Program-made: the position numbers and the translations under genes | Assembly (NCBI RefSeq): GCF_029867415.1 | Contig: NC_081185.1 | Span: 117,345,987-117,409,986 of the forward strand | Direction: 5' to 3' | DNA: 64,000 nt | Source of the DNA: Vicia villosa | Lineage: Eukaryota > Streptophyta > Magnoliopsida > Fabales > Fabaceae | Part shown: positions 10,865-55,536 of the stretch, in pieces | How positions within the stretch are numbered: the stretch's first letter is position 1 | Layout of the letters: every line of letters starts with the position of its first letter | The notes under the pieces: generated by a model | What the model was told of the DNA's origin: nothing | What the model saw: only the letters and a program-made list of their open reading frames with translations | Databases searched by the model: none

Positions 10865-10914
10865 GAAAATTTCTTCACCCACCTCCTAACCTTCTTGCTC
10901 ACCCCTGGTGAATT
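10865..10914. repeat. Left terminal inverted repeat of element 1
   Basis: It begins GAAAATTTCTTCACCCACCT and continues imperfectly into a CACCCCTGGTGAA segment. It matches the inverted right end at 15233-15282 and both ends of element 2 (52393-55536). Confidence 0.85.
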
Positions 10915-10932
10915 TACAACATTACCCCTTGT

Positions 10933-11139
10933 TTCGGAAGTTCATTTCCGAAACGGTACTTTTTTTTGGAAAAAAGGTGTTTTCGGAAATGAACTTCCGA
11001 AAACGTGTTTTTTTTAATATAAAATATTGGTTTCGGAGATGCATCTCCGAAATAAAGTTACATTATCAGAAAATGTGGTGTTTCGGAAGTTCATCTCCGA
11101 ACGCACCCCCATGATGGAATTCGGAAATGAACCTCCAAA
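10933..11139. repeat. Palindrome cluster, 3' subterminal region of element 1 (5 copies)
   Basis: Copies at 10933-10952, 10982-11001, 11032-11051, 11082-11101 and a decayed one at 11120-11139. The consensus is TTCGGARRTGCAYYTCCGAA. The copy at 11032 is a perfect palindrome with centre ATGCAT. Starts are spaced 49, 50, 50 and 38 bp, a strikingly regular period. The TTCGG and CCGAA arms are constant while the middle varies, as expected for a site bound by a protein dimer. Confidence 0.92.
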
Positions 11140-11233
11140 TTTATGTCTGGACAGAAGAAAAATGAAAAACAACAACGATTCGCTTTATTTAATCGGGTGA
11201 AGATTACAACGATAATATTACTGAAAATTAAAG

Positions 11234-11605
11234 TTACATATTGTTGAACACGGGTAGGTGGGGATGAGTCAACATTTTGATAACGTCGTCCGCCGATCTT
11301 TGAAGTTTGGCGTCCAACTCGATCGGGCCTTTCGAAGAAAATCGGTCGAACGTTGTCCACATAACCGCTAAATCTTCGTCGTTCTTGATCTCAAAAGGTG
11401 TGAACTTAATGCCTCCCTCGTCGTTAAGCGATGGCGAGCGGTACTCGAGCTTGACAACCTTTCGATTCTCGGGATAGCGCAAAAGCGTGTTGAGCGACGG
11501 TATCAATTCCGCAAACGGCGTGTCGCGCGAGAAGCGAAATTGGAACGGCATCGGGTAGCCGGTTTCAAAGTAGACGAATGCTAGGTGGGGGTAGGTTTGT
11601 GTCAT
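11234..11605 (-). CDS. Small accessory protein of element 1, MuDR N-terminal-like domain
   Basis: The product is 123 aa, starting MTQTYPHLAFVYFETG. An in-frame ATG exists upstream at 11683, but it lies upstream of a TATA box at 11647-11654, so I chose the ATG at 11605. The body has a basic and hydrophobic pattern (QFRFSRDTPFAELIPSLN, VVKLEYRSP, FTPFEIKNDEDLAVMWTTF). This resembles the N-terminal beta-grasp (PB1-like) segment often placed before the transposase domain of plant MuDR proteins, where 'L-Y-R-P ... F-P-D-DDED---MW' is characteristic. Here it would be a separate protein downstream of the transposase gene on the same strand. It may be the element's second protein, as MURB is for maize MuDR, although no sequence relation to MURB is seen. 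The ORF is intact. The domain call is tentative. Confidence 0.6.
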   Translation of the reverse strand: MTQTYPHLAFVYFETGYPMPFQFRFSRDTPFAELIPSLNTLLRYPENRKVVKLEYRSPSLNDEGGIKFTPFEIKNDEDLAVMWTTFDRFSSKGPIELDAKLQRSADDVIKMLTHPHLPVFNNM

Positions 11606-11646
11606 TTGTGTTTTGTGGTGTGAAGAGGATGAAGAAGAGTGTGTAG

Positions 11647-11654
11647 TATTTATA
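11647..11654 (-). promoter_or_regulatory. TATA box of the small gene of element 1
   Basis: TATAAATA on the minus strand, about 42 bp upstream of the ATG at 11605. The predicted start of transcription is about 25-30 bp downstream, near 11620. Two palindromes lie about 54 and 96 bp upstream of it. Confidence 0.6.
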
Positions 11655-11707
11655 GACTTATTGGAGCATTGATGGCCCAACAAACCTTATCCTGCCTCAG
11701 GGGACAT

Positions 11708-11769
11708 TTCGGAAATGAACTTCCGAAAATAGGCTCCAGACATGTATATTTCGGAAGTTCATTTCCGAA
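11708..11769. repeat. Palindrome pair upstream of the small gene's TATA box
   Basis: Copies at 11708-11727 (TTCGGAAATGAACTTCCGAA) and 11750-11769 (TTCGGAAGTTCATTTCCGAA). The two are reverse complements of each other. They sit between the stop of the transposase gene (11981) and the TATA box of the small gene, in promoter position. Confidence 0.9.
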
Positions 11770-11980
11770 TTATGCAGAAACAGAGGTGAATTTTGCATTT
11801 TGTGCATTGCATTCTGTTTTGTGTAAACAATACCAAAAGCATACAAAATAGGCATAAAATAGGCAATGACAACATAAAACATACTTATATTATATATGTA
11901 TTGAATCGGTCCGATTTTACATGATAAACAACAATACATACAAAAAATGATCGTTACAAACAAAAACGATCCGGAACGAA

Positions 11981-14707
11981 CTAAAATTCACCGAACCAAT
12001 CGGTGGATCCTAAGTCCAAAATAGGCACGTTCTTCGACCGCTCTCTATTTTGCTCGCGCTCTTTGCTCATCATTTCTTCAAACTCCGCCATCCTCGAAAC
12101 GAACAGATCCGGCCAAGTCTCCGCCTCATTTGAACGATGTGCCGTCCATTGACAAGAAGTAGCCGGTATAGGACAACCCGGTTTCAAAAACACTTGAACG
12201 AAGTGCCGCGATCGTAGATACCCGATGCATATGATGCGGCCCGACGCGTCCAACGGCGGTCGACTATGAAGTGGAAAGAAAGTCTCACTTAGTCCAAACC
12301 TCGTCAAATCGATACACACCATATCATACGCACTTGCTATTAGATGACCCATATCGGGGAATGACATCCACTTCGAAACCGGAGCGATACCGGTAAGTGA
12401 TGGAACAAGTGCATCATGAATTTTTGCAAACTTTTCTTGATTTTCATATAGTCGGCCGTAGATGTCCCGATACGAAGTCAACTCCGCAATGAGTTCCCGT
12501 CGGACTAAAGTGTGATTATTTTCCCCTTTACTGAGCAAACCCGCAACGGCCCGATATCCACAATTGTCGTCGCCTCCAACATCAACGATGTTATCGATAT
12601 ATTTGTGCATAAAAAATGGCATCTCATCAATGTAGACAATTAGTGATTTTTTGATCGGCGGTGTACGAGGTGGCTTCGAAATACGGGCTCCTTTGTTACC
12701 CCTACACTTAGACTTCGGTGTCTCATGAATTTCCGGGAACGATGCATCAACATGTTCAAAGTAGGAAGGAGATCGTTTTGTTGACATGTCATCTTGTGTA
12801 ATTTTGGACTTTTTCGGTGCACCTTTCGTTTTAACCGGTTGAGATGGCGGTTTCAAATCGGTGGTCTCCGGAAATGCGATCTTTCGCAATTGTTCTTTTA
12901 TGTGCATTTTTGTTGTGTCGTCCGCTTTAGCAAACTTCTCCATTATCACTTCCAACTCGTCGGAGATGGTGATTTTGGAGTCATTTTCTTTCGTCGGGTC
13001 AAAATCATCAAAACGAAGCTTCTTCCAATGGTCGGCTACCTCATCCATGCGTATTGGTGAATTCAACTTCTTCTTTTTTGCAAGTATACAAGCACATGGA
13101 AGGCCGTATGTCTTTCTAATGGTGCACCCACATAATGAACTATTGGGCCCCGTGGTCTCCGACCGCTTAGCTTCATGAAACAAAAAATTCAAACCCGTTC
13201 GAGATATGTTGTAAATCAATTGGGAGAATAGAATTTGGCCCTTATACCGGTGTTCCATAACCGTCTTGCTCCGACCGAACGATGTTTGAATTTCATTGTG
13301 TTGATTTTCAAGCATTTGGTTCACGGTGTCCCATCCCCGACACAAATCTCCCTTGCTATCACCCAACCACCTCTTGAAGACCGCATGTGCGGATTCAACA
13401 CGGTTAGTCGTGGTGCAACCAAGATGTCTAACTCGATTTGTCCAAGCGCACACGACTTTTTCTCTAACTTTGTCAAGAATGGTGGATTCGACGTAATGAC
13501 AAAATGTCCTAATGGAACCACACAAAGACCTAAAGTGTACCAATTTCTCGGTATACACCTCTTCGGAGTGTGCATCCAAAATTTCCTTCCATGCCGACAT
13601 TATCCTTTCAACCACAACACCGGCTTTGACAACTTTACCGTTTTCATCCGGCCTATCTTTTGTCCCAACCGCGGGTTTCAACTTGCTTCTCACGTTGCAA
13701 GTTATGTGATACCGGCAAAGTAACGCGGTCGATGTCGGGAAGACGGTATCGACCGCATTCATCAAAGCATTGTCTCGATCGGTGACAATGACGTTTGGCA
13801 TAACCTCTTGATCAACTAACAAAGACTTGCAAATTCCCAAGGCCCACGTAAAGTTTTCTTCTTTTTCACACTCCAAAAAAGCAAACCCCACCGAATAAGT
13901 CTTGTCCGTCGAGGTCACACCGACGATCTCTAGAAGAGGAAGCCTATACTTGTTTGTCTTGTACGTCGAATCCATGACTAGAACGGTTGGAAATGTGTTG
14001 AACAATTTGATACTTTCGGGATGAGTCCAAATAATATCACGCACGGTAACTTTGTCCTCGGAGGTTCGGAAGCTTGAAACATAATTGTTATCGCCTAGAA
14101 GTTTCAAAAGTTGTTGCATTTCCGACCGAGGGCCCATATTCAAAACCTTGAGATTGTGCCGTTCATTGTAAACTTGCTTGATATTTGAAACGCTATCCGG
14201 TTTCTTACGCTTCAAATCGGCAAGTATGTTGCGAGGCGCCACTTTGACTATCGTTAGGTCCGATATCACATTTCTCTCTTCGCAGGACAAACGACACGCC
14301 ATTGGATGCCCGTGTAACTTGACATCCAAGGCATGATTATGCATTCCACAAATTACGGTTAACTGCCACAAATCATCAACCCTCCGAGTGGCACGCAACT
14401 TAAACGGACACCCGCACTTTCTCGATCCCGTGTCCTTGTGTTTTAGCACCCGGTTTGATTGTACATATCTACCACCCCGTTCGCAATTCAAAACAACGAA
14501 AGCTTTCCGCCTACTATTTCCGTTGTCCGACCTTAAAATAACAATTCCAAATCCATGTTTGTTAGCTTCCTTCCAATCAACCAAATGTTGCCGAACATCG
14601 ACCGCATTGATCATGGGAGTAGCGTCAATAACCGGATCGTTATTAACGTTGACAATTTCCGGATTTAATACTCCATCGTCTTGCACAATGTTGTCCGGAT
14701 GCACCAT
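11981..14707 (-). CDS. MULE transposase with FAR1-type DNA-binding, SWIM-like and C-terminal OTU domains
   Basis: The product is about 908 aa (913 if translation starts at the in-frame ATG at 14722). I prefer the ATG at 14707 because it directly follows a splice acceptor at 14710. Numbering from the 14722 ATG: a FAR1/WRKY-GCM1-like zinc-binding domain at about 45-135 (C103, C105, C125, H128/H130); MULE DDE core with D251 (VLVMDSTYKTNKY), D315 (VIVTDRDNAL) and E443 (NRVESAH), plus a CRYHITCN motif; a SWIM-like finger at about 531-545 (CGCT...PCAC, where the last ligand is Cys instead of the usual His); a basic linker; and an OTU cysteine-protease fold from about 711, with catalytic D718/C721 (GGDDNCGYRAV) and H840 (RSRHFVQVF). 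The transposase cuts and moves the element. The OTU domain would be a deubiquitinase. The frame is fully open and all catalytic residues are present, so the protein may be functional. FAR1-MULE-OTU fusions are known in plants, but the OTU role in transposition is not established. Confidence 0.92.
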   Translation of the reverse strand: MVHPDNIVQDDGVLNPEIVNVNNDPVIDATPMINAVDVRQHLVDWKEANKHGFGIVILRSDNGNSRRKAFVVLNCERGGRYVQSNRVLKHKDTGSRKCGCPFKLRATRRVDDLWQLTVICGMHNHALDVKLHGHPMACRLSCEERNVISDLTIVKVAPRNILADLKRKKPDSVSNIKQVYNERHNLKVLNMGPRSEMQQLLKLLGDNNYVSSFRTSEDKVTVRDIIWTHPESIKLFNTFPTVLVMDSTYKTNKYRLPLLEIVGVTSTDKTYSVGFAFLECEKEENFTWALGICKSLLVDQEVMPNVIVTDRDNALMNAVDTVFPTSTALLCRYHITCNVRSKLKPAVGTKDRPDENGKVVKAGVVVERIMSAWKEILDAHSEEVYTEKLVHFRSLCGSIRTFCHYVESTILDKVREKVVCAWTNRVRHLGCTTTNRVESAHAVFKRWLGDSKGDLCRGWDTVNQMLENQHNEIQTSFGRSKTVMEHRYKGQILFSQLIYNISRTGLNFLFHEAKRSETTGPNSSLCGCTIRKTYGLPCACILAKKKKLNSPIRMDEVADHWKKLRFDDFDPTKENDSKITISDELEVIMEKFAKADDTTKMHIKEQLRKIAFPETTDLKPPSQPVKTKGAPKKSKITQDDMSTKRSPSYFEHVDASFPEIHETPKSKCRGNKGARISKPPRTPPIKKSLIVYIDEMPFFMHKYIDNIVDVGGDDNCGYRAVAGLLSKGENNHTLVRRELIAELTSYRDIYGRLYENQEKFAKIHDALVPSLTGIAPVSKWMSFPDMGHLIASAYDMVCIDLTRFGLSETFFPLHSRPPLDASGRIICIGYLRSRHFVQVFLKPGCPIPATSCQWTAHRSNEAETWPDLFVSRMAEFEEMMSKEREQNRERSKNVPILDLGSTDWFGEF

Positions 14708-14709
14708 AC

Positions 14710-14901
14710 CTAACAAATGCAAAAATTAGCAAAATTGGCCAAAACTGTTTTTTTTTAACTGCCAGGGCATATTTCGGAAGTTCATTTCCGAAATTTATTA
14801 GGTGATATATTTCGGAAATGAACTTCCGAACCATATCAGTTTTCAGCATAAATTTGTTGAATCAATGTAGTGAAATAGGGGATGAAATGAGAGATGTTTA
14901 C
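14710..14901 (-). other. 5'-UTR intron of the transposase gene, holding two palindromes
   Basis: On the minus strand, TTTCAG is followed by GTAAACATC (donor at 14901-14900) and the acceptor is TTTGTTAG ending at 14710, 3 bases before the chosen ATG. The 192-bp intron contains palindromes at 14773-14792 and 14811-14830. The upstream exon would lie between a TATACAAAT-like box near 15050 and 14902. The intron is predicted from splice signals only. The same architecture is found in element 2. Confidence 0.6.
14773..14830. repeat. Palindrome pair in the transposase 5'-UTR intron
   Basis: Copies at 14773-14792 and 14811-14830, with starts 38 bp apart. They are reverse complements of each other (GAAGTTCATTTC versus GAAATGAACTTC centres), as in the pair at 11708/11750. 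Confidence 0.92.
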
Positions 14902-15069
14902 CTGAAATTGTAGCTTTCTATGCTCCCTTTAACGTGATCAACGGTTTGAAACTTGATTTTAGGGCGAAAAATTGATGGAGATTGATTGGGTTTTAGAGAG
15001 GATTTTGAGAAGTTTTGGAGAAAAATGATGAAATAGTGAAGGAGGGAAATTTGTATATGCAGAAATATT

Positions 15070-15218
15070 TTCGGAAATGCACTTCCGAAAATATTCACGG
15101 TTTTGAATTTTTTATGACTTCGGAGATGCATCTCCGAAAATACCAAAAAAGTGGTGTTTTCGGAGATGCATTTCCGAAGTAAAAAAAAAAAAAAAAACTT
15201 CGGAAGTTCTTTTCCGAA
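15070..15218. repeat. Palindrome cluster, 5' subterminal region of element 1 (4 copies)
   Basis: Copies at 15070-15089, 15119-15138 (perfect, centre ATGCAT), 15159-15178 and 15199-15218. Starts are spaced 49, 40 and 40 bp. The cluster lies between the predicted transposase promoter and the right inverted repeat. Confidence 0.92.
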
Positions 15219-15232
15219 GCAGGGGCAGTTTT

Positions 15233-15282
15233 GGGTTTTCGCTGGGGGTGACCCCCATAGGGAGGTGGGTAAAGAAATTTTC
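15233..15282. repeat. Right terminal inverted repeat of element 1
   Basis: Read inward it begins GAAAATTTCTTTACCCACCT, then CCCTAT and a GTCACCCCCAGCGAAAA segment. The GACC-CCAGCGAAA block is closest to the ends of element 2. Confidence 0.85.
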
Positions 15283-15290
15283 AACATTAA
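15283..15290. repeat. Right TSD of element 1 (AACATTAA)
   Basis: Identical to 10857-10864. The following T and the base at 10856 do not extend the match, so the duplication is 8 bp rather than the 9 bp usual for Mutator elements. Confidence 0.93.
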
Positions 15291-16040
15291 TGACTAATTA
15301 TTCAAAAAGCAAGATGGGATTGAGGAATGAAAATTGTAGTTAGTGTAGTAACATCGTTGAGATGAAGATGCACATGCTTAGTGATTGTCCTCAAGATATG
15401 ACGTTATGGTTGAATGTGATGAGTAGTAATAATGGTCGGAGTTTATTTTTCAACACTAATCTTACATGTTGTCATGTTGAATTAAGTTTAATATCATGAA
15501 TGAAAATAATGTTGGTTCTGATATGGATTGGTCGTCCTATTGAGCTACCACATACCATGCTATTTTGTTGTGGCAGAACAAAAGCATACATGTGGATAAT
15601 TGGCAACGGCCTATGAAACCTTGAGACAAAAACTCCAAGTATGTTGGAGCATATAACAGTTAAGAGATCGATTAATGTGATTCGTCGTCGAGCAAGGATG
15701 AGAATCAAGAAGGCAGTGGACGGCTCTTTAGAGTAAGTGGTCGAGAATGGCTTGGAGGTTTTTCAAAATTTGTGGGGAGTTGTCGTGCTTGTGTAGGCGA
15801 GTTGTGGAGTGTGTTAGTAGGATTGTTTTGTGCTATGAGGCTTGATTTTGAAAATGTTGAGTTACATGTTTATTCTCAAGTGATGGTCAAGATGACTATG
15901 GGAGATTATAGTGTGAGTCTTTCGTGTCGAAGTTTGATTAGAAGAACTCGTCGTTTAATCAATTAGATTGGAAAATTAGAGCTTAACATTCTTACCATAT
16001 GTGCAAATTTGTTGGCAAATTTGGGTTGTGATTTGGAATA
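15291..16040 (+). mobile_element. LINE relic, right part (zf-RVT and RNase H)
   Basis: This continues the LINE relic at 10590-10864. zf-RVT residues come first (NENCS, then MKMHMLSDCPQDMTLWLNVM), then spacer, then the RNase H domain REWLGGFSKFVGSCRACVGE, LWSVLVGLFCAMRL, VELHVYSQVMVKM, and LANLGCDLE ending at a TAG at 16038-16040. In the RNase H fold the conserved HVDS aspartate is Tyr (HVYS), so the enzyme would be dead. Several stops and shifts occur before about 15740. This LINE differs in sequence from the one at 4198-6326. Confidence 0.82.
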
Positions 16041-16396
16041 GAAACATTCTTAACATAGTTGGGAAAAAGAAACATGAAAGTTTTTTAGGATCAAATGCTC
16101 CCTTACTCTTAAAAAACATAAAAAAGGAAAAACAGAAGATTTGGAATAAATATCATACACAATAACTTAACTTAAAGTTGAAAACAAAAGAAAAGTTAAC
16201 CAAAACTTAGTCCAATCATCTAGAAGTGAAAAATAAGAGGGAAAATAAGCTAGTAATTCTTCTCAACATTGCAACATCCCAACTCAAAACAAAATCTTCC
16301 TACACTTCCTCTACCTCGGGGACGGGATAAGCCTCACACTTTTCAACTAACACGACCTGCAGATTATCGTCCGCCTACTTGAATACTTTGCCGGCT
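16041..16396. other. 3' UTR region of the BCCP gene
   Basis: No separate gene. This lies just downstream of the BCCP stop codon on the minus strand and abuts the end of the LINE relic. Confidence 0.5.
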
Positions 16397-19300
16397 CTAC
16401 GGTGCAATCACAAATAGGGGCTGCAAAGGAACAAACAAAATCAAATCTCTAATGACAAAAAGTTACTAGTTTTGCTTGAGTTACTAGTCACGGGGGTCCG
16501 GAATGTACTTACAGTACCAACGCTGACAGGCTTGGCATCTTGCGTGATGATTTCAACTATGGTTCCTGACTTATCAGCCTGTAAATAGTACACAAATTTA
16601 GTCTCAGATGCCACAGGATCATCAAGACCATAAAAAATCGCTACAGCCAACACATCTTTTGTTGACTTTTTTGTTTCCATCTTATAGTTACAACTTACAA
16701 GCCAAGTTAGGAATCAGATTTAAGCATATTTATGCTTCTTCTTGTTTTAAATTCAAGGTTTAAGTTTAATGAATGAAGATGTCTAAAACCATTGTCCAAA
16801 CTTATATAATTCATTAATTTAGCACTGTATACTTTTCTTTCCATAAAAACTGTGAAGTTTAGCTATTCTGAACTAACATAATAAATGCAATTTGCCCAAT
16901 TTTTTAGTACTACTTGAAGTACAAGTTTTCATTAATAGTTGATATTGGAAGGATTCTTTGCTTTATTTATTCATGCTTTATAGGTGAAGAACTGTACCTT
17001 AACAAAAAAGCTAAATGTATGTTAACAAACTCATGAAACTACATGGAGCTTCAAAACTACTGAGTCTTTATATTTGATTACTAACAAACCTATTCACATA
17101 TTATTAAATATCAAGGAAAACTACAGGAAGGAGCTATTAATGAGAGGTGGAACAAAGCATGCTGAAAATGAAAACAAAAGAAACAAAGATTCCTGAGCAA
17201 TAGATTAACCTATATACCGCTTTCCTCCTTTACCTATCTCATTCAACTTTTCCAAATATTTGCTTACTTGTAAGTCACATTTTTTCAATAAGTTACTATT
17301 TTATGGTAAGAGTGAAAGGCATCGGTTTAATCATGGTTTTACTGTCAAAATCGAGGAATATAATCCTAGATATGTTAAAAATGCAACACAAAGTCCTGAA
17401 ATACTAACAAAACAAAATGAGAAATGTAGAGCTATAAAAATGGGTTAGCCCATATGGGTGGTCGTCAAGCCCAATAAGACATAGGGTGTGGGCCTTTAAA
17501 TTTAAACCTATAATTTTTTTAGGGCTTTTTACCGGCCAAGAAAAGTCTGCTACCCATTAGGACTAGCCTGTATGGGCTATGGGCAGTCTATCTGACCCGA
17601 AATACTCAATCTCAATCGTAAACAACACAATGAAGACCTCCCTCACTTTACAAAATATCTTTTCTATTTTATTCAATTTACATGATAGAAAAGTAGAGGT
17701 TAGTTCTTACTATGTTATATTATACATTTGTACACCAAGAGACTATTAAGCAGAAAAAAGAGCATCGTCAGACACATGTAATAATCCATATTTAATAATA
17801 ATAAGCTAAGTCTGAAAAAATGGATGTGAATGGCTTAATTTAATGTTCTTGAAGATAATTAATTAGACACGACCCTTCACCAATCATACATTGCGAGTAA
17901 ACACGATTTTTCAAGTGGCTTTTTTCCTAAACTAGTACTTCCTCCTTTCTTTATTATAAGTAAATTTTAACTTTTTAGATTTATTGAATAATTGAAGTAT
18001 CTAGTTTATAGTATTTTTTAAAATAGAATATAGTACTAATAAGTAATATGTTTATAGTTTTTGAAAAAAAATATATTTAAGAGTTGGCCTGTTCAGGGCC
18101 AGATTTAAACAGTTTTTTGGCCCAATCTAATAAACCTTGAGGCCGGTTTAGGGACGGATAGCCCATTTTGACAGCTAATTAGTATGGATGGTGAAAGCAT
18201 CGAAAAGCAACTTGCAGCTTGTGTTTAAGGTACATGCCAACAAGAAAAGCTACTTCAAATCTCATTCACATGAGACAGAGAGAGCATCCGATAATACCAA
18301 ACTCAAATGTTCTTAACTTTCCAAGCTAGATTTGTCGGAACATAGGCCAAGAAATTCAGAATATCTAGTAAATTGAAAATCCTAGATGTAGTATGGATGG
18401 CAAAAGCATCGGAGAGTAACTTGCAGCTTGTGTTTAAGACTTTAAGGCATATACCAACCAGAAAAGCTACTTCAAATAGTTTCTCCATAACAACTGATAA
18501 TTCTAAACTAAAATGTTCTCAAGTTTCCAAGCTAAATTTTTCGGAACATAGGCCAAGAAATTCAGAATATAACACCAGGCGTAACTAACAACAGCCAAGA
18601 CTTATAAGTTATACCAACTACTGGATTGGCTCATGGATGAATGAAATGGATTAATAGATGCCACTACAGAAACAGGGTCTCCAAAAAACGAAATATTCAG
18701 AAAACAAAAAGCAAACAAAATAGACCGAGGCATACTGGGAAGGCCAGTTTTGTTAATACACGGATGTCCTACAGAATCATAGACCTGACAAAAAAGTCTA
18801 TTGATGTGGGTTGCTTTTGTTAAGGAAAAGCTACACAGTTATTTTTTAACCTTGCCTTTGCATTTGGACTTTCTCGAATTGTTGGTGAAAAATGAGTTTT
18901 CTCAAAGACCTTGCAACTAATCTAGTTGAACAAATTCCAAGGCTTTAAAACGGGTAAGGAGAGAAAGATGTTATGGCGGGGTCCTCTTCATGTGTTGTTC
19001 TGTGATATCTTTGTTTGAAGTGGATTTTGATTTTTGGGAAAATTTTGTCACTTCTAGACTGGTTTTTGTGAAAGGTTTGTTTCAAGGCTCCACCCTAGTG
19101 CTTTTCAGATGGTTCTTTCAAGTATTTCTATGTTATTCAAACAAAGGGATTGTAAAACATTTTTATATTATCAAATATGCTAGCAACACCCTATTTTCTA
19201 TGCAAGGTAATTAAAGAACCAAATTCAATATTTAAATAGTGCAAAGAAAAACATGAGAGGTAGTTGGTGTATAACAAATAAGTGCATCTTATAGAGTCAC

Positions 19301-25967: not shown

Positions 25968-25975
25968 CATGGAAA

Positions 25976-44478: not shown

Positions 44479-47400
44479 CATATAGATTTCTTCTTCTAAG
44501 TCACCATTTAAAAAGACTATTTTAACATCCATTTGGTATACTATTAAGTTATCAATAACAAATATTGAAATAAGTACCCTAATGGATGTAATTCTAGTGA
44601 TTGGAGAGAAGGTGTCGAAGAAATATATATTTTTCTCTTTATCTAAATCCCTTGGCTACAAAGCGAGCCTTGTATTTATCAATAGTTCCATTAGGTTTTA
44701 GTTTCTTTTTCAAAACCCATTTACAACTGATTGATTTGCAACCAGGAGGCAAGTCTACTAAGTGCCAGATATTATTATACTATAGAGAATCTATCTCATC
44801 ATTGATAGCTTCTTGCCATAAATCTGCATATAGAGATGACAGTGCCTATTGAAGATTTATTGGATCCACTTCTACATCTTAAGCCGCATACTCGGGCCCA
44901 CAGTCTTTAGCAACTCTTACTCTTTTACTTCTTTGAAATTCTATTTCTACGTTGTCGTTGCTTTCCGTACTTCTTATCACAGGAATGTGACGCGATTGGG
45001 TCCCGCCGCTATTTCTCGATTTGAAAGGAAATTTATCTTCATAGAATTCAACATCATTTGATTCTAAGATTAATTTTGCATTTAGGTCATAAAACCTGTA
45101 TGCCTTACTGTTTGCTGCATATCCAATGAATATGCCTTCATAGGCTCTACTAGCGAGTTTAACTCGTTTTGGATCTAGAATACTGACATAAGCCAGACAA
45201 CCCCAAGTTCTCAAATAAGACAAGTTTGGTTGCCTTTTCTTTAATATCTCATAAGGTGAGATCTTACTTTTTGACTTGGAACTCTATTCAGTACATAGAA
45301 AACAGTCAATAAAATTTTCCTTCACCAGTGAGGTGCAGCACCAGAATTCATCATAATTGCAACAACAAGTTCAGTAAGAGTTCTATTCTTTCTTTCTGCT
45401 TTACCATTCATTTCAGGAGAATATGGCGTAGTCGTTTCATGTACAATTACATGTTTAATATAAAAATCATTAAACAACCCAGAATCGTATTCAGTTCCCC
45501 TATCACTACGAAGTCTCTTAATCTACTTATTAAATTGATTCTCAATTTCAGTTACATACATCTTAAACATGTCAAGCGCTTCACTTTTATTCTTCATTAA
45601 GTATACATAAGTATACCGTCGTGATACGCGTCTTAATATTATAGTTACGACAGTTATCAAGTAACTGTCGCAATTTTTGTGTCGTAAAAACATAATTTTC
45701 TTGTAGTGAATCAGGGCAACCGTCAATAAAATTGATAAAATAACGTTTACTATTTCTTGTCAAAGTTCCATCTAATTCACATATATCAGAGTGTATAAGA
45801 TCTAGGGGATCAAATTCTTTAATAATTGATTTATGCGAAGTCTTAATTATTTTAGCTTGACTACAATATTCACATTTATTTGAATCATTGACATTTAATT
45901 TAGGGATTAGGCCTAAGTTGCTTGCATTAGAAATAACTCGCTTATTAACATGACAGAGTAAACAGAAAGCCAAATGTTAAATGACACAAAGAGTAAACAG
46001 AAGGAGAAATTTATTCAAATCAACATTTAACTTAAACATGCGATCAGTGGCGTACCCTTTCCCCGAAAAATATACCATTCTTAGTGATTGTGTACAAATC
46101 TGCCCCTATAGACTGACTAAACTCTGCCTTATTCAAAAGAAAACCAGAAACAAGATTCATTCTAAGTTCAGGAACAAGTATGACGTCCTTCAAGATTAAA
46201 GTCTTTCCTGAGGTGAAGTTCAACTCAATGTTTCAAATTCCAGCACCATCGGTGGTGTGAGCATCTCCCAACAACACTTTATTATTTTTAGCATTCGTGT
46301 ATGTCTTGAACATAGCACGATCATAGCAGACATGACGAAAGGCGGCAGTGTATACCCACCAATCGTCACTTCCCCCAACCATGTTGATTCCAGTGATCAT
46401 AGCAATGAATTTCTCATCAGTCAGGTTAACCTGTGCATTAGAGCCAACAGGTTTGGGCCTACTCTTACATCTCTTAGTCATATGACCTGATTTTCCACAA
46501 TTATAGCAAGTGAAAACCGGAGCATCATTTATTTGAGTTGGTGGTTGCTGTCTAGCAATTGGAGCAGATGGGCCCCTTGAGGGATTCCCATTCTTAATTT
46601 GGTTCACAACATTGCAGTTCTGATTCTTTAATGTTTTTCCCGTAGGCTTCAGTTTGTTATTATAAACAACTAAGACTTCATCCTTCTGATCTTGTTTTCT
46701 AGCTTCCTATTCAATTCGAAGGCGAGTGATCAGACTCTCGATTGAAAACTCTTTTGTTTTATGCCGAAGCATGTTTTTGAAATCTTTCAACCAAGGGGCA
46801 GTTGTTAATGATAACAGCAATTTGAAAATTTTCATTGAGGGGCATACCTTCTGTAATGATTTCATGAGGGATCTTCTAAATTTCGTGGCTTTGAGCTTCC
46901 ACAGATTTTTCATCCACCATCTTATAGTTCAAGTAGCGGCTGACAACATATTTCTTTGCACTTGCTTCTTCAGTATCATATTTCTTTTGCAGAGCCTCCC
47001 ATACCTGTTTAGCAGTCTTGTAATTATTGTAGTAATCGTACTAATCATCAGCAAGACTGTTCAAAATGTGATTTTTGCAAAGATAGTCATTCTCTTGTCA
47101 TAAGGAGATTTATTTCCCAGGCTGTAATTTATCTGTTGCATCTTTAGTTTTTGTAGCAGAGTCTAAATCAGACATTTTTTAAGTCCCGTCTAATTCCACC
47201 GGTGTCTTACCATTAGTTAGTTTAATTGATCCAAAAGGAGCAATAGAGATATCCTCAGTCAGAACATGGGCAACCTTCCTTAAAGTTAAGAAGAATTTCA
47301 TCTTAGCTTGCCAATGTTTGAATGGAGAACCCTAAAATTTAAATGTTTTGTCAGACACAATAACGACCGCGATAGTTCTGATAATTTCCTCAGTAGACAT
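44479..47400 (-). mobile_element. Decayed Copia gag-protease-integrase-RT (5' two thirds)
   Basis: On the minus strand from the gag ATG at 47400 (MSTEEIIRTIAVVIVSDKTF): UBN2-type gag, a CCHC knuckle (CYNCGKSGHMTKRC) at about 46500, protease region (WWVYTAAFRHVC), gag-pre-integrase (LCHVNKRVISNASNLG), integrase core start (HSDICELDG), integrase end (TWGCLAYVSILDPKRVKLAS), and RT start ([43 protein letters not shown]). It ends at about 44479. Many stops and shifts occur. The protease active-site triad DTG is YTA, so the enzyme is dead. Part of the integrase is missing. No LTR was fixed. Confidence 0.88.
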
Positions 47401-48736
47401 GAAAGTTAATACAAACATCTTAAAATTGTTGTTTTTTGGATTTTGAAAAGATTGCCATGACGAAAGTTATCGGCTGAGTTGCGAAACAATACGCTTTCTT
47501 TAATACGTTTAGCGATACTGTCAAAATTATGCAAAACAACTCTTAATAACCACGACGCCTCCAGGATAAAACAATTCATTCACAAAATGGTTACGATTAT
47601 CATTTGCACTGTGATGAATCGTTCAAAGAAATACACCTTCAGATGGTGTTTAAACCACTCGTAGTATCTGAAACAATTTCAGTCATTGATGGCGCACAAG
47701 GTCACTCAAAAAATAAAGAAGAAAGAATTTGTTTTAAGATGAAGAAAATAGATAGGGAGAAGAGAGATTCCAAAATTTTGAAATCTGGCGTACCTTTTCA
47801 ATAAACTTAAGAATCATATTTATAGGTAAATGATTGAACTAAGTGGAGAGAAAATAGTGGGAGAGTGGAGAGAAAATAGTGGGAGGGAGTTACTTAGTCA
47901 AAATTAGGGATAAAGATTCTTTGATGTTAGGGCGCGAAAGTTAGAGTGCCTTTTGTAACTTTTGCACCGTTGGATTAATCAGGCAAATGCAAAGGAGCCA
48001 CATCCTACTTTTCTACTTAAAAACGAAACATACACACGGCTGAATGAACTTGGAACTGCCACAGTCAAGATTGAAAGCTTTATGGAGATGCCTCTTTTGC
48101 TTCCTCTTCGTGAACTTACAAATTGAAAGAATTTTCAATTTGACTAGCTATGATGTGATAAAAATTATTCTTCTTATATTAAATTTCATCCCTGTTATGC
48201 AATTTTTTGTTTGTTAGAAAATCGTACAATTGAATTGATGAATTTTCAATTAATAGCATTGCACCTGAAAAAATTGTAATCTAATGATGTAAACAATGGT
48301 GAATATCTATTGTAACCTTTAAACAGTTCATGGAAATTTTAGAATCTAATGGAAGTATATATGGAAATTTATGCCATGGAAATCAAGCCGTCCAAGTTTT
48401 TCTTGTTTTACCAAAAGTGTAATGAGATGGAAGCATACTCTCAAGTGGTCGTAACAACAGTGAGTGTCATGACATTAAAGTGATGTGGTGCAACAAAAAA
48501 TATTACTGCGGGGGCGGAACATCTGCAGCAAAGTGTAGGGGCAACAAAACAGCCTATTATTTTTTTGTCCAACGTTGTACTTTAAAAAATGGAAGAAGAT
48601 AAACAGTAAGTCTCACGTGGCATATTTGAGTCCACTCAGTATATCAGACGGCTTAAAATTTCCAACAATAACGTTAAACTAACTTTCCCGTAATAAAGTT
48701 AGACAACCCGTTCTCCAAAATTAAGTTTTGATGAGT
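47401..48736. other. Leader/LTR side of the Copia relic, then spacer
   Basis: The stretch to about 47960 is probably the 5' leader and LTR of the minus-strand Copia, but I found no primer-binding site or TG/CA ends. About 48000-48736 is AT-rich with no recognised gene. Confidence 0.35.
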
Positions 48737-48741
48737 GACTC

Positions 48742-51502
48742 TGTAACACCCGAAAATTAATTTAATTATTTAAATAAATTATTCAAGGATTTAATATGGA
48801 AATTCGATCGAAGTTGGATTTATTAGTGATATTATAAGACGAGGGATTGGATTATTTAGTCGATTAATCGGAGAATTAATAAAGTTGATTTTTGTTGAAG
48901 AAATAATATTAGTAATAATATTATTATTTAATTTGGTTCAGTTGTGGTGTGGCATATATAGCAATACGGTGGTGTACAATTAGTAGGCCCATTAAGAAAT
49001 AATAGTAACTATATTATTATTTGATTTATTGGATTAAGAAGGAGAATATATGGAATTAGGTTTCTGTGAAAATAAAGTTGTGGCTTTTGGGAGAATATAT
49101 CGTGAAACAAAGTTGCCGACAAAGAGGAGCGAGGTTTTGGCAGAGGAAGAATCGATTGTTAATTTTTAGGAAAAGGCAAATAGGGCAAAGGCTTGCACTT
49201 GATCGGATATTAGAGGCGATCTCCAATACAAGGTAAGGGTGGGGTTCGAATCTTATAACCGAGAATATGATGATTGTTATGTGGGATCGGGGTTGTATAA
49301 TTTCTACCATGATTTTGTTTAAACAGTGCAATCGTTAAATCGTTAATTATTCGGTTTTGTAAATCAGTGAATTTATGTTGAACTGTTGTTGTTGGTATTG
49401 TCGAGTAGTATGTTGTTTGCTGATAATTGACCCAATGATGTGATCTGATAAATTGATGGAATTGAAAATCGTGGTATGGCTTTTGTATAATTATCACCAG
49501 CAAGAGTCTGTACTCGGAAGGAATTAGGAAAAAATTAGAAGGAAGAAACAATCTGGAGACGGGGGCCTCCAAATGGTAGTGGGACCCCCTTGTAACCGAG
49601 ACGGGCGTCTCATGGCCCTTGAAGATGGGGGAGGGTGCTTCCATGGGCCCTTAGAAATTGGAGACAGACATCTCCTTGATTGTGATGGGCGTCATGCCAT
49701 TGTGGAAGAATGAGGCGCGCGCCTCATACTTAAGGTGGAGGCCACTTTGTTGTTTTGTTCTTTCTCCTCACGTGTGTGTAGTGTGTGTAGTGTGTGTACA
49801 GTAAGTATGGCTTTGGATAGTCCTTGTTAGCTCTACTTAGTATATATAATGGTTAAAGTAATATAAGTATCCTAAATATAATTGTGCAGATGTTTAATAG
49901 GCAAAAATATTGTATGGTAATAGAAAAATAACTTAGTGAATATTTGATGGAAGTATCAGTAGCATGTCTATAATTTAGCAAAAATAATATATTTGCAGAG
50001 TAGTATATTTTGCTAAGCAGTGTTATTTTTAGTGCGATAGAACACTAGTATTAAGTTGCAGGAAAGTAGTAAGCCCCTCATTTGACAGTATAGATTTTTA
50101 GTAGCAGTGCAGTTGGTAGTGGGAGTAATTAATCAGTAACAGTATAATTAAGTAGTAGTAACGGCAGTTAATGAAAACAGTACCGGCTAGTCACATTAGT
50201 AAATTTACGCGATAAAATTAGTTGTCCGGAATTGGTTGGAATTGTCAGAGTAAATCGCGTATACTGAGATGTATTTTTGGTTAATTTGTTTCGTTATAAT
50301 TATGTCGAATGAGTTGATATACAGGTGCAATATAATTATTTCAGTTTATGGGAATGTGTTGTTGATGAGTTGCTATTGAACACGTTGTTTTGAATACTTG
50401 TTGCTGATTCTGTTGTTGCCAAATATATTGTTGTTGTTGAACTGCCGTCGATTATAAGTTGTTATTGATAAGTTGAATTGTTCCGATTTATGGACAAGTT
50501 TGAGTTGTAGGTCGAATGACCAGCGTTTGATTTAAGTTGATGCAATTGATGCATGTTTAAGTTGTTGTTTTCGTTGTTGTTGGTCTGGTTGTCGTTGTTG
50601 ATATTATTGATTGTATGTCATACATAATGTCGCATACATTGCATTGTTTAAGTTGACCTTGATTGGCATTGTTGAAGTTGGCCTTGAAGACACGCTGTTC
50701 AAGTTGTAGAAATGTCTCGATAACCTGACATATGTTTAAGTTAGGAGTTCTGCCCCAAATGGTACCACATGCATGTGCATAGTTTGTGTCGCATTTCGAG
50801 TCATTGTGAAGTTGCCGTTGTTATGAGTTGCTGTTGATATAAGTTGTGTTGGTTTGAGTTGTGAAATAGTTAATATAATTATTGTGATGATTGTTGTTGC
50901 TGATGGTTGTTACTAGTTGTTGCTATAGTATTATTATAACCGTTTTTTGAAAGTAGTGATGATTATATGATTCCTATCTAATATATTAATTATCATACTT
51001 TTGTTTATATTTTTCGATATCTCACCCCTTCTGCTGTTGTTTCCCCTACCATGGGAAACAAATAGGTATTCAAGATAGCGGTGGAAGTTTGAAGTGATTT
51101 TGTGAAGTCTTTAGTTACTGTTAGTCGAGTTGGTGTCGTGCTCTGATACGTAGCACTCGGGATGGGATTACGATTGTATTTGTTGTTTTGTTGTTGTGTT
51201 ATTATTATAGCTGTTGCTGTTGAAATCCAAGTTGAATAATTAGAAGTAATTATTGTTGTTTTAAGTTGTTTTTAGTTGAATAAAAGTTGATGAATAGTTA
51301 TAAGTTGAAGTTTGATCTAGCTGAATAAACTTGATGAATTATAATTTTAAAATTGTAGATGCCGAATGCTATGTATCAAAGATAAATGAAATACAGGTTG
51401 TTTGTGGCTTTAAGTAGAAAATGTAATGCCTCATGTTTGATGTTTAAAATTTTCCGTACTCTAATTTTATTATAATTACTGGGTAGAAAATAGGGTGTTA
51501 CA
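48742..51502 (+). mobile_element. Solo LTR, 2,761 bp, Gypsy/Tekay-like chromovirus
   Basis: It begins TGTAACACCC and ends GGGTGTTACA, the inverted-repeat termini usual for Tekay-type Gypsy LTRs. It is flanked by a perfect 5-bp duplication GACTC at 48737-48741 and 51503-51507. No gag, pol, primer-binding site or second LTR is present, so it is a solo LTR left by recombination between two LTRs. The 3' third has a pattern common in such LTRs (CCCCTTCTGC, CCATGGGAAACAAATAGG, GTAGCACTCGGGATGGG). The middle (about 50380-50930) is very rich in GTT/TTG words. The open frames inside are chance. Confidence 0.9.
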
Positions 51503-51507
51503 GACTC

Positions 51508-51971
51508 ATTATTAATTAATAATTAATTAATATTAATAATTACCAACAACTCATTCGTTATAAATCTCTCGAGTAATAACCATTATGGTTATTTGATCTA
51601 AGTATGTGACATTCCTTTACTTCTCGAGCAATGTCAGGCTACAAATGAAGAGGAAATATTTGAAGCACGGGTATCATGATCTCTTTTCCCCTTGATGGAT
51701 TCACGATCTCTTTTTCTCATTACCTTTTGAAGCTCATGATTTAGCTCATTGGTTGTTAGAACAACTTCTAGATAAGTCATATAATAATGTGTTTTTTAAG
51801 TCGGTATTTATGGTTTGGGTTCTGGTTTTTATGTGATTTTGTGGTCTGGGTTGATTTGTGTTTATGCATAGCAAATTCAGAATTTTTCCTTCATTTTGGT
51901 ATGTGTTTACGTATAGCAAATTCAAATTTGAACATGTGTTTTAAATCCCTTACCATTTCTTACGCTTAGGT
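51508..51971. other. Spacer between solo LTR and MITE
   Basis: An AT-rich run, then unremarkable sequence with no gene recognised. Confidence 0.5.
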
Positions 51972-52272
51972 CAGTGGTGGAGCCAGAAATTTTAGGGAGC
52001 CTGGGCAAAAAATTTTACACCTTGTTTTTACTAATTTTACACTCTGTTTCTACTAATTTTACCCTTAATTTTATCTTAAAATTTTGCCCTTAATTTTGTC
52101 CAAAAATTTTACACCATGTTTTTACTAATTTTGCCTTTAATTTTGTCTAAAATTTACTAATTTTGTCCCTGGTGTTATCTGAAAATCGACTATTATGTGG
52201 GGAATATACAACAAAAGGAGGGGTTGAGCCTGGGCGCATGCCCGGACTCGCTGGGCTGTAGCTCCACCCCTG
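51972..52272. mobile_element. hAT-type MITE, 301 bp
   Basis: The ends CAGTGGTGGAGC and (inverted) CAGGGGTGGAGC are inverted repeats of a widespread plant hAT family. Flanking 8-mers GCTTAGGT (51964-51971) and GGTTAGCT (52273-52280) match at 6 of 8. The inside is built of imperfect TTTTACTAATTTTACCCTTA-like repeats. Confidence 0.8.
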
Positions 52273-52384
52273 GGTTAGCTACTATTTAGTAAATACTTTT
52301 TATCTTTGTGGGGCACATGCTCCACATCTAACTCCTGAACTTACTTTTGTCTTTTTGCTCTTTGTTTTACGTTTATAGACAATT

Positions 52385-52392
52385 AGAATAAA
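52385..52392. repeat. Left TSD of element 2 (AGAATAAA)
   Basis: Identical to 55537-55544. As in element 1 the match is exactly 8 bp. Confidence 0.88.
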
Positions 52393-52446
52393 GAGAATTT
52401 CTTTATTGACCCATAGGGGGGGGGGGTGACCCCCAGCGAAATTCTC
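52393..52446. repeat. Left terminal inverted repeat of element 2
   Basis: GAGAATTTCTTTATTGACCC, then a G-run, then TGACCCCCAGCGAAATTCTC. The G-run (about 11 G) replaces the CACCTCCCTA block found at the other three ends. Confidence 0.85.
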
Positions 52447-52459
52447 AAGTTGCCTCTGC

Positions 52460-52613
52460 TTCGGAGATGTATCTCCGAAATATTTTTTTTTAAAGATTTT
52501 TTCAGACTTCGGAAATGCACTTTCGAAAAAGCCAAATGGGGGTGTTTTCGGAGATGCACTTCCGAAAACACCTTTTTCACATTTTAGGGGGATTTCGGAA
52601 GTGCACTTCCGAA
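52460..52613. repeat. Palindrome cluster, 3' subterminal region of element 2 (4 copies)
   Basis: Copies at 52460-52479, 52508-52527, 52547-52566 and 52594-52613, with starts 48, 39 and 47 bp apart. The last (centre AGTGCACT) is a perfect palindrome. Confidence 0.92.
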
Positions 52614-52848
52614 ATATGCAGAAAATGTGTTTTTTTATGTTTTTCTTAACAGTCCCGTATTTTTAATTAAACGAAAACGCCGAATAAAATAAACGACATA
52701 TCAACATAAAATACTAATATAATAAATACAATCCGAATAATATATACAAGTCGAATAAAATAGTATTAGTGTGTGAAATACAACCCGGATACAATAAAAT
52801 CCAAGAAAATAATCCGGAACCCTACTGTGTATGCCTAACCCTATCTCC

Positions 52849-54835
52849 CTAGGACCTCCTCTGCCTCCTATATGCCGCCGCACAGTCCGCATCACCGACC
52901 ATCCTCTCCATCACGGCGACTGCCTCTAGACCGCCCTGATCAATGATACCTCACTCCAACGCGTCCCGCCCAAGCATCCCTATCCGCTGGCATATCGGCA
53001 GGAGATCAATGGCATGGTCATCCTCGACCTGCTGGTTCTCCAGGATCTCCTCGTACGCTGGCCTAGGAGCGCTGGGAGCGTCGCCTGACATTAGAGGATG
53101 TGACACCCGATAGAACCATGTGACGTACCCCTCTACACAATGCCATTCCTGGGTGGCCTGCATGCGACGATACTCCTCCGGGACCACATGACGCTCCCAG
53201 TCCGCAAATATGGAAGTGAGCTCCACTCGGGTAACTGTGTCGGGAGCAGCCTCAAACGGTGACCTCGGTATCATCTGCACATGTCCAAATTGCCGCATGC
53301 ACCACTCTGGGAGATACCTCACCATGGTGTTGGTCCCGCATGCCAACCAGCCAGAATATAACGTGATGTGGTCAAAGGGGACAGCAACAGTGTAGTCACT
53401 GAATGGCCTCGAACGAATGTCATCGTGAGCTCTGCGGTCGAGGTACCTACGATATGGTCTCACTGCATTGTTCCCCCTTTGGAGAATGTACCGGGCGGCC
53501 CTGGGCATGGTGTCCTCGTACGCAGGATCATTGGCGAAGCCGTGGATGCGGGGGAAGTAGGAGATGATCCAGCCCTGAAACACAAACACAATAATGTATT
53601 CAAAATAAATACGAACCATAAATAAATGTGAAACAATTAAAATGAAATGTACCGTCAGGAGTGTGGCGGATCCGGTCATCTGCCTGATCCTCCAATTGGA
53701 GGCTTCATTAAGCTTCTGGTATAGGTATACCAGAATAGCTGACCCCTAGTTCCACTGGTGAATGGTAGTCACATCCATGAAGTAGCGGAGGTAGGTCACG
53801 TCGACGTATCTTGCACTCTTGTCCACAAAGAGTGCAGTGCCTACCAAAAACATGAACCAACACCGGAGAGCACAGGCACGGTGATACTCCATAAATAGGT
53901 CATTACCCGCATCCTCGGAATCGACCGCCGCCACCAAGTGGTGCTCATACTGATCGCTCAATGTGGAGAACCGGATATGAGGCCCATTTGTCGTCCGGCA
54001 CTCAAAATCAGCCATATCTGGGTCCATACCCATATAGATCGCCATCCACTCGATCGCATCAACCCTCTGGATCTGGGAATGGTTCAGCAGTATCCCCCTA
54101 ATCGGCAAGTGGAGAAGACAATGCACATCGTGCAAGGTGATCGTCATATCCCCAACCGGTAAGTGGAAAGAAGACGTTTCCATATGCCACCGCTCCATAA
54201 AAGCCCCCTGCATGCCGTGGCTGATGGTGGTATACCCGGTCATGCATAACCCACCTAGCCCGAAAGCAGTCACTGCATCATTAAACCACTGCGCCTCTGG
54301 TTTAAAGAGACCAAATATCTTCCGCGCTTGGTTCACCATTTTTAAAGTCAGCCTTTCTTGTTACAACAAAAACAAAAACAAAAAACATTGTTCTATAAAC
54401 CGTTAAGAAAATGTGGAATAAAAAGCTAAATAAAAAATGGTTAAATAATAAAGTCGAATAAATTATAAAAAATACCTCTCCCTCCCAGACACGTAGAGCG
54501 ACGTGCTCGTGGTAGGAAATCAGAACGGACGTGTCCCTAGGCCCTTCCGGGTAGCCCTTCTCCTCCTCCCCGTGTGGAGGATCAACATCAGGTATCTCCT
54601 CCTCCGCCTTCTGGTATCTCACCTCCTCCTCCTCCCGTACCTCTTCTTGACGGGAAGAAGATACCCGAGCCAACTGACTCCTCGATCCAGACGAGGAACC
54701 AGGCTCATCTGTCTGTACAGATGCTCGTACTCCACCCCGTCCCCGTGTCGATGCAAGCTGCGCCGCCCGCTCGCGTCTAGCCGGCGCTGTCTGTGTCTCT
54801 CTCCCCTGTCTGATACGTGTTGGGTTGCCTGCCAT
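52849..54835 (-). pseudogene. Plant mobile domain (PMD, MAIN/MAIL1-like) gene with two nonsense codons
   Basis: Exon 1, 54476-54835 (120 codons, ATG directly after a splice acceptor), encodes a basic/acidic disordered leader ending HEHVALRVWEGE. Exon 2 (about 54350-53653) holds MVNQARKIFGLFKPEAQWFN, LGGLCMTGYTTISHGMQGAF, VGDMTITLHDVHCLLHLPIR and CALRCWFMFLVGTALFVDKS. Exon 3 starts at 53574 (GWIISYFPRIHGFA) and runs through FDHITLYSGWLACGTNTMVR, YLPEWCMRQFGHVQMIPR and YRVSHPLMSGDAP to LPICQRIGMLGRDALE. These are the PMD-C signatures. In-frame stops at 53746-53748 (where Trp is expected after HQWN) and 52951-52953 interrupt it; reading on, the domain continues to a natural stop at 52849-52851. 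The exon 1/2 phase is imperfect at the acceptor, so that junction is uncertain. Host PMD proteins act in transposon silencing and meristem maintenance. Confidence 0.85.
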
Positions 54836-54839
54836 ATTC

Positions 54840-55158
54840 CTGAAACAATTTAAATCTATAAGCGAACAGGTTAGAAGGCGAAACAATCAAGAAAATAAAA
54901 AAAAAACTTTCTGAGTCAACTTTGGAAGTGCATTTCCGAAACTGGTCAAGGAGGTGTTTTCGGAAATGCATTTCCGAAAACACCTGCGACTCCATTTTTG
55001 CAGAAAACCCATTTCTTCCCCTAAATGCTTCAAAATCAGATTTTTCCTATCTAAACAACCTAAGTGACTAATAGTAACTTAACCCTATATCATTATCCTA
55101 ATTTCTAACAACCCTAATTTGAATATCAATGCTACAATTTAAGTTTGTGAGAACTTAC
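54840..55158 (-). other. 5'-UTR intron of the PMD gene, holding two palindromes
   Basis: Donor GTAAGTTCTC begins at 55158 and the acceptor TTGTTTCAG ends at 54840, four bases before the ATG. The 319-bp intron carries palindromes at 54921-54940 and 54959-54978 (starts 38 bp apart, the same spacing as the pair in the intron of element 1). Confidence 0.68.
54921..54978. repeat. Palindrome pair in the PMD 5'-UTR intron
   Basis: Copies TTTGGAAGTGCATTTCCGAA (54921) and TTCGGAAATGCATTTCCGAA (54959). The second is a perfect palindrome. Confidence 0.92.
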
Positions 55159-55360
55159 AATTTTGAAGCTTTGAATGTAGCCTTTGAGTAGTCTTTGAAG
55201 GTTGTAGAGCAACTTTGTAGAGCAACTTTAAAGTAAGTTCGTGTAGTAGCAACCGCAAATGGGAAGATTTTTGAAAATATTTGAGTTTTAGGATAAAATG
55301 GAATTGGTGGGGGGCTGTTTTGTTTAAACACCAGAAAGGTGATTTTTTATGTAAGTATAT

Positions 55361-55467
55361 TTCGGAAATGTATTTTCGAAATATTTTTTTTACGTAAAAA
55401 AAAAAGTGATTTTGGAAATGCATTTCCGAAATCAGTCTTTTTTCAACTTTGGAAATGCATTTCCGAA
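55361..55467. repeat. Palindrome cluster, 5' subterminal region of element 2 (3 copies)
   Basis: Copies at 55361-55380, 55411-55430 and 55448-55467 (starts 50 and 37 bp apart). Two carry TTTGG instead of TTCGG in one arm. Confidence 0.9.
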
Positions 55468-55485
55468 GTAACGGGGCAATTACGG

Positions 55486-55536
55486 AATTTCGCTGGAGGT
55501 CACCAAGAAGATAGGGAGGTGGATAAAGAAATTCTC
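55486..55536. repeat. Right terminal inverted repeat of element 2
   Basis: Read inward: GAGAATTTCTTTATCCACCT, CCCTATCTTCTTGGTGACCT, CCAGCGAAATTCCG. Shares the CTTCTTG-type block with the left end of element 1. Confidence 0.85.

What the first reader, a model, noticed from the sequence alone, without database searches (positions are those of the whole stretch)
10865..55536. One 20-bp palindrome family unites two transposons that encode unrelated proteins
Element 1 (10865-15282) and element 2 (52393-55536) together hold 22 copies of TTCGGARRTGCAYYTCCGAA, 13 and 9 respectively; I saw none elsewhere in the window. The outer arms are almost constant while the centre varies but stays nearly self-complementary, as expected for a binding site of a symmetric dimer. 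Starts are spaced mostly 37-50 bp. Placement is the same in both elements: a cluster inside each end and a pair in the 5'-UTR intron. Element 1 has a further pair upstream of a TATA box. Known background: transposases often bind subterminal repeats, and FAR1-type domains bind DNA. Inference: the FAR1-MULE protein binds these palindromes to pair ends and to control transcription. I know of no description of this motif system, but could not search.
Basis: partly seen in the sequence, partly recalled or inferred. Interest (0 to 1): 0.93.

Follow-up and report, generated by a model that had tools for sequence, protein, structure and literature searches.

The report
Two-part transposon sharing palindrome tags
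In the hairy vetch genome two kinds of jumping gene, one carrying the enzyme for jumping and the other a protein predicted to resemble a known transposon anti-silencing factor, share the same repeated 20-letter DNA tag, and related elements carry both genes together with a different tag, which suggests one transposon system split in two.

Summary
In detail: 22 palindromes (13+9), none expected by chance, in two transposons with similar ends and 8-bp duplications. The genome is Vicia villosa. It holds 19,037 exact palindromes. Of 3,277 exact TIR 17-mers, 2,705 have a palindrome arm 30-60 nt inside. Of 21 sampled clusters, 12 belong to elements encoding a plant mobile domain (PMD) protein, 2 to FAR1-MULE transposase remnants, 6 to short noncoding elements; 1 is unassigned.

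Best reading: a split VANDAL-like system whose palindromes are shared recognition sites, most likely for PMD as anti-silencer, with the FAR1 transposase as main rival. Binding is untested.

The parts
10865..15282 (.). Element 1: FAR1-MULE transposon; TIR GAAAATTTCTTCACCCACCTCC / inverted copy
   Evidence: TIR arms 22 nt, 95%; two genome copies L029 and L030, 97.8-97.9% identical, with own 8-bp duplications TTTAGTTA and AAAAAGTG
10857..10864 (+). Target-site duplication AACATTAA, left (right copy 15283-15290)
   Evidence: read
10933..11139 (.). Five palindromes at one end of element 1 (starts 10933, 10982, 11032, 11082, 11120)
11708..11769 (.). Pair of palindromes upstream of gene 2 (starts 11708, 11750)
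14773..14830 (.). Inverted pair 38 bp apart in the inferred 5'-UTR intron of the transposase gene
   Evidence: intron 14710-14901 inferred by eye from splice-site sequences
15070..15218 (.). Four palindromes at the other end of element 1 (starts 15070, 15119, 15159, 15199)
11981..14707 (-). Transposase, 908 aa: FAR1/AFT zinc finger, MULE DDE domain, C-terminal OTU domain; open frame
   Evidence: Pfam: MULE and AFT above cut-off, FAR1 26.9 bits against 28.1; structure model matches ISCth4 transposase and OTU domains
11234..11605 (-). Gene 2, 123 aa, no Pfam match; 20 relatives found, the named ones all Vicia villosa; 35% identical relative in sister element B
52393..55536 (.). Element 2: PMD-encoding transposon, no transposase found; duplication AGAATAAA
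52460..52613 (.). Four palindromes at one end of element 2 (starts 52460, 52508, 52547, 52594)
54921..54978 (.). Pair of palindromes 38 bp apart in the inferred 5'-UTR intron of the PMD gene
   Evidence: intron 54840-55158 inferred by eye
55361..55467 (.). Three palindromes at the other end of element 2 (starts 55361, 55411, 55448)
52951..54339 (-). PMD (PF10536) in ORFs 53746-54339 and 52951-53679; premature stop at 53746-53748 in this copy
   Evidence: Pfam E 2.8e-16 and 9.8e-9; stop by comparison with P24 and P22

Best explanation
Elements 1 and 2 are the two halves of a Mutator-superfamily system in Vicia villosa. Element 1 supplies the transposase (FAR1 finger + MULE + OTU) and a small second protein. 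Element 2's family supplies a PMD protein and is moved by the transposase in trans through shared ends. The 20-bp palindromes are the system's recognition sites. Most likely a PMD dimer binds them at both ends and in the 5' noncoding parts of the genes, and keeps these elements out of host silencing, as VANC does for VANDAL elements, so that the transposase gene is expressed and the ends stay open. Shown: anatomy, linkage of palindromes to ends, conservation of sites in most alignments, complementary gene content in the copies examined, co-residence of both genes in two sister elements with a different motif, purifying selection on PMD. Supported by a structure prediction and weak sequence matches only: the VANC-like fold. 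Inferred: binding, dimer, anti-silencing, mobilisation in trans, and that the split is derived.
Confidence: 0.5

Rival explanations
1. The FAR1-type zinc finger of the element 1 transposase binds the palindromes as subterminal repeats to assemble the ends, and the internal copies autoregulate transcription. PMD in element 2 acts by other means.
For: Sites cluster inside both ends and are retained in short elements without a long ORF; the transposase has an AFT/FAR1 zinc-finger match; a sister transposase family has a different motif.
Against: Does not explain why PMD is under purifying selection and keeps company with the motif; sites are also in introns and a promoter region, in an inverted 38-bp pair; most of the FAR1 part of the model is below pLDDT 50, so nothing supports a particular specificity.
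Confidence: 0.3
2. A host factor binds the palindromes (for instance a plant transcription factor that recognises the TGCA core), and the elements have copied its site.
For: Sites lie in inferred 5' introns and upstream of a gene.
Against: The outer arms are at least as constant as the central dinucleotide; the site changes with the element family in the same genome; similarity to the MAIN/MAIL1 DOWN motif is not above shuffles (3192 of 20000 reach it).
Confidence: 0.08
3. The palindromes act as DNA or RNA hairpins (cruciforms, small-RNA sources) rather than as protein sites.
For: Arms are self-complementary; one copy in element 2 is a perfect 34-bp palindrome (sequence).
Against: The centre is TTCA or TGAA in 84 of 128 sites of the gene-bearing elements counted, and site spacing has helical steps, neither needed for a hairpin.
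Confidence: 0.06
4. Passive amplification: the palindromes spread by tandem duplication and are carried along without function.
For: VANC motif arrays expand as tandem repeats (PMC5735166, passages); an 80-bp tandem array with the motif lies in L014; in one of 4 alignments sites are no better conserved than spacers.
Against: Sites exceed spacers in conservation in 3 of 4 alignments (0 of 665, 3 of 302, 0 of 323 circular shifts; the fourth 129 of 267).
Confidence: 0.06

Closest known systems
VANDAL elements and VANC anti-silencing proteins (Arabidopsis MULEs; PMC5735166, PMC10398659, passages seen)
   Same: MULE encoding a transposase plus further proteins; short motifs in terminal noncoding, intronic and intergenic DNA; motif differs by family; a PMD model superposes on VANC21.
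   Different: VANC motifs are short, in tandem repeats, and the word palindrome does not occur in the two papers; here 20-bp palindromes; transposase and PMD sit on two different elements; clear TIRs; PMD instead of a full DUF1985 protein.
PMD captured by MULEs (Ikeda et al. 2017, PMC5418596, passages seen)
   Same: PMD-C gene in MULE transposons, with an anti-silencing role proposed there as speculation.
   Different: Described there as fusions with the transposase in grasses and Amborella; here a separate PMD gene in a legume, alone on an element or beside an unfused transposase; no DNA motif described in the passages seen.
Host PMD proteins MAIN/MAIL1 and the DOWN motif (PMC7156037, PMC9899485, passages seen)
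   Same: PMD protein linked to a short promoter motif.
   Different: Motif CATGCAGTTT is not significantly like the palindrome; direct binding was left open in those papers.
En/Spm TnpA subterminal repeats (recalled, not looked up)
   Same: Element-encoded protein bound to many subterminal sites at both ends and in the promoter.
   Different: CACTA superfamily, different protein, shorter non-palindromic sites.

Membership tests
Mutator-like elements (MULE) | MULE DDE transposase domain | tested here: met
   Met by element 1: PF10551 E 1e-25; model matches ISCth4. Element 2 has no transposase hit and is filed by its ends.
Mutator-like elements (MULE) | 8-11 bp target-site duplication and TIRs (range recalled) | tested here: met
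   8 bp in elements 1, 2, L029, L030; 9 bp in L015, L017, L021, L027 and both sister elements.
VANDAL | Transposase plus VANC-type anti-silencing protein on one element | tested here: not met
   Genes are on separate elements in this family; together only in sister elements A and B, with PMD in place of VANC.
VANDAL | VANC protein with a DUF1985 domain | tested here: inconclusive
VANDAL | Protein binds the motif and removes silencing | not testable with these tools
   needs binding and methylation assays
VANDAL | Non-TIR MULE (as described in PMC13317346, passage) | tested here: not met
   22-bp TIR, 95%
Plant mobile domain (PMD) family | PF10536 above gathering score | tested here: met
   60.1 and 35.3 bits for the two exons against a cut-off of 34.9

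The most novel reading that the evidence does not exclude
PMD proteins are, as a class, VANC-fold sequence-specific DNA binders, and the vetch pair is a bipartite transposon: a once single transposase + PMD element has split into two mutually dependent elements held together by a shared palindromic code whose centre changed in both halves.
Probability: 0.35. Interest if true: 0.88.

Novelty: new variant of a known kind. Interest (0 to 1): 0.74.

Why it matters
What PMD proteins do at the molecular level is described as unknown or unclear in passages of PMC8616336 and PMC9899485. A predicted VANC-like fold, plus a TE family in which a PMD gene travels with a specific palindrome, gives a direct binding test with a ready-made target site. 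If true it links the host proteins MAIN/MAIL1 to TE anti-silencing factors, and gives a natural case of a transposon split into a jumping part and an anti-silencing part. The family looks recently active (33 of the 50 scored transposase copies, all at 95% identity or more and the window's own included, have no inner stop), so it could be followed in living plants.

Tried and rejected
Prokaryote and virus collections: 0 hits in viral contigs, 4 in genome contigs, all in Bacteroidota records, taken as chance and not followed. Five exact motif strings in papers: 0. DOWN-motif similarity: rejected. PDB sequence search with the PMD profile: only a ribosomal protein at E 3.5; single PMD P0144 gave only an RNA polymerase subunit at E 0.87. 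Foldseek without VIA gave no significant PMD match (23 at E up to 10, 0 at 0.001). A self-complementary centre as a hairpin requirement: rejected. Literature for a PMD-DUF1985 or PMD-VANC structural link: none among the listings; two searches listed only 15 of 119 and 20 of 179, and the library has no preprints. I recall a preprint on PMD protein-DNA motif modules and Polycomb; not seen, content unsure, and it could lower novelty. Babu et al. 2006 (PMC1702500) is not held.

Sampling notes: the 21 clusters are the first listed on contig C1, not random; two of them (L019, L020) are the two ends of one element. Loci L005-L008 (cut out) overlap L009 and were not counted. S11 was left out of the short-element alignments. 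One search counts only EL1, L029, L030, eight C1 PMD elements, element 2 and six short elements; L009, L013, L016, L019/L020, L026, L028 and the clusters L010b, L011b, L012b, L014b are not in it, and their sites are.
Full report
WHAT IS THERE. The window lies at G000:C6:117345987-117409986 of a 2.03-Gb assembly. Element 1 (10865-15282) encodes a 908-aa transposase with MULE and AFT/FAR1 matches and, by structure model, an OTU domain, and a 123-aa second protein. Element 2 (52393-55536) encodes a PMD protein; no transposase was found in it. Its PMD has a premature stop, so this copy is broken, while P24 and P22 have a Trp codon there. In both elements an intron inferred from splice-site sequences ends just before the ATG and holds a palindrome pair 38 bp apart.

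GENOME SCALE. The TIR 17-mer TTTCTTTACCCACCTCC has 3,277 exact places (control 1), and 2,705 of them (82.5%) have TTCGGA 30-60 nt inside (control 0). From base composition I would expect about 0.6% (own arithmetic). I fetched the first 21 listed clusters on C1 (20 loci). Twelve clusters (11 elements, one apparently interrupted by a large insertion) carry PMD, two carry remnants of the transposase (80% and 52% identical over the part kept), six are 1.2-1.9-kb elements without a long ORF, and one is unassigned. Both ends were recognised for 16 of 21 clusters, one end for 2 and none for 3; the right end of L009 was judged by eye. Duplications are exact over 8 or 9 bp in most of these; L018, L023 and L025 have 1-2 mismatches, L011 is a run of A, L009 is approximate, and L024a shows no clear one. 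For element 1's transposase 50 of 12,214 first-look candidates were scored; all 50, the window's own included, are full length at 95% or more, 33 without an inner stop.

CONSERVATION AND SHAPE. In nine PMD elements the palindromes are more alike than spacers: 0.913 vs 0.747 at the 5' side (0 of 665 circular shifts reach this) and 0.910 vs 0.822 at the 3' side (3 of 302). In five short elements the right side gives 0.929 vs 0.826 (0 of 323) but the left side 0.933 vs 0.929 (129 of 267; no difference). Detection by similarity and alignment anchored on the sites favour this result, so it is supportive rather than proof. Start-to-start spacings fall in modes at 28, 38-40 and 47-51, steps of about one helical turn; copies are related by descent, so no p-value is given. 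The centre is TTCA or TGAA in 28 of 39 sites (three element-1 copies), 56 of 89 (nine PMD elements) and 8 of 53 (six short elements). Six more divergent copies (L009, L013, L016, L026, L028, element 2) have TGCA, TGTA or TACA centres, with one TGAA site in L009. The intron pair is an inverted TTCA...TGAA pair at 38 bp in three element-1 copies and in the eight C1 PMD elements (element 2 has TGCA centres). The 18-bp spacer is unrelated between the two types in the copies printed. Relative to the ends the two genes run in opposite directions, because the 5' end of element 1 resembles the 3' end of PMD elements best. So the shared pair is not simply a shared end.

SELECTION. Median dN/dS is 0.27 (66 pairs of 12 sequences) and 0.31 (78 pairs of 13) for the two PMD exons; the ranges reach 0.78 and 1.17, several copies have stops, and pairs are not independent. 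Transposase and gene 2, element 1 against L009: 0.19 each; transposase against L013 (82 codons): 0.31.

SISTER FAMILY. FAR1-MULE transposases found with a Lathyrus sativus query (P0053) are about 35-36% identical to element 1's. The three loci fetched (L031-L033) have none of our palindromes at up to 4 mismatches. Flanks completed two elements: A, 5,652 bp with duplication AAATTGAAA, and B, 5,785 bp with AAAAACAAA; L033 is a near copy of A. Both carry a PMD gene and the transposase gene facing each other; B also has a relative of gene 2 (35%, E 6.6e-16), not found in A. Sites AACCGGA/TCCGGTT number 14 in A and 10 in B, all within about 410 bp of the ends, against Markov means of 0.36 and 0.49. 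Many pair into inverted repeats such as AACCGGAATACCC-N6-GGGATATCCGGTT. They share the core CGGAA with our site, but the CGGA and TCCG cores span 25-26 bp instead of 16, about one helical turn more (worked out by hand). Divergence is parallel: transposase A-B 64-74% and element 1-A 33-41%; PMD, with P0151 (90% identical to A's PMD over its main match) as stand-in, 48-61% to B and 32-35% to P24. PMD HMM hits: element 2, eight PMD elements, A and B; none in three element-1 copies or six short ones. Transposase HMM hits: three element-1 copies, A and B; none in the other 15. The joined state as ancestral is likely but not shown, since no plant outgroup DNA was available.

MECHANISM. Published passages say VANC21 sits in introns, intergenic and terminal noncoding DNA of VANDAL21, binds a 9-base motif, and that VANC6 has other motifs, also found in an unrelated element that loses methylation with it (PMC5735166). 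The layout here is the same, with PMD in the place of VANC and the transposase on another element. Ikeda et al. 2017 (PMC5418596, passages) report PMD captured twice by MULEs, as fusions with transposases, and speculate on anti-silencing; [quoted passage not shown] I therefore prefer PMD as the binder (0.5) over the transposase (0.3). The short noncoding elements and the end clusters fit both. The TTCA/TGAA centres shared by both element types suggest that one factor reads both, whichever it is; exchange of ends between elements is another way to share terminal sites, but would not explain the intron pairs with unrelated spacers.

NOVELTY. Each ingredient has a precedent. The separation onto two element types with one palindromic code, the sister elements with other codes, and the PMD-VANC fold match were not found in the listings, in a library that lacks preprints and most subscription papers.

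Noticed in passing
L014 5706-6013: Tandem array of about 80-bp units, each with a more or less decayed palindrome, without recognised TIRs.
   Followed up: partly
L010 2708-3255: Palindrome cluster with decayed copies and no TIR or gene assigned; perhaps an older related family.
   Followed up: partly
window 54952-54985: Perfect 34-bp palindrome AGGTGTTTTCGG...CCGAAAACACCT in the element 2 intron; similar extended arms are seen in other PMD copies printed.
   Followed up: no
proteins: Many legume relatives of the transposase are annotated 'PKS-NRPS hybrid synthetase' or with other unrelated names, apparently misannotation of transposon proteins.
   Followed up: no
proteins P0194 and P0195: A Vitis protein with PMD and MULE domains and an Aristolochia protein with PMD and PF03108 (MuDR-type, name recalled).
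   Followed up: no
L012, L015, L021, L024, L027: Short 1.2-1.5-kb elements without long ORFs, 90% or more alike over long stretches, with 9 palindromes each; apparently a multi-copy non-autonomous family.
   Followed up: partly
L019 and L020: One PMD element apparently interrupted by an insertion of roughly 11-12 kb between its two ends, which still share the duplication ACAATTTA; the middle was not fetched.
   Followed up: no
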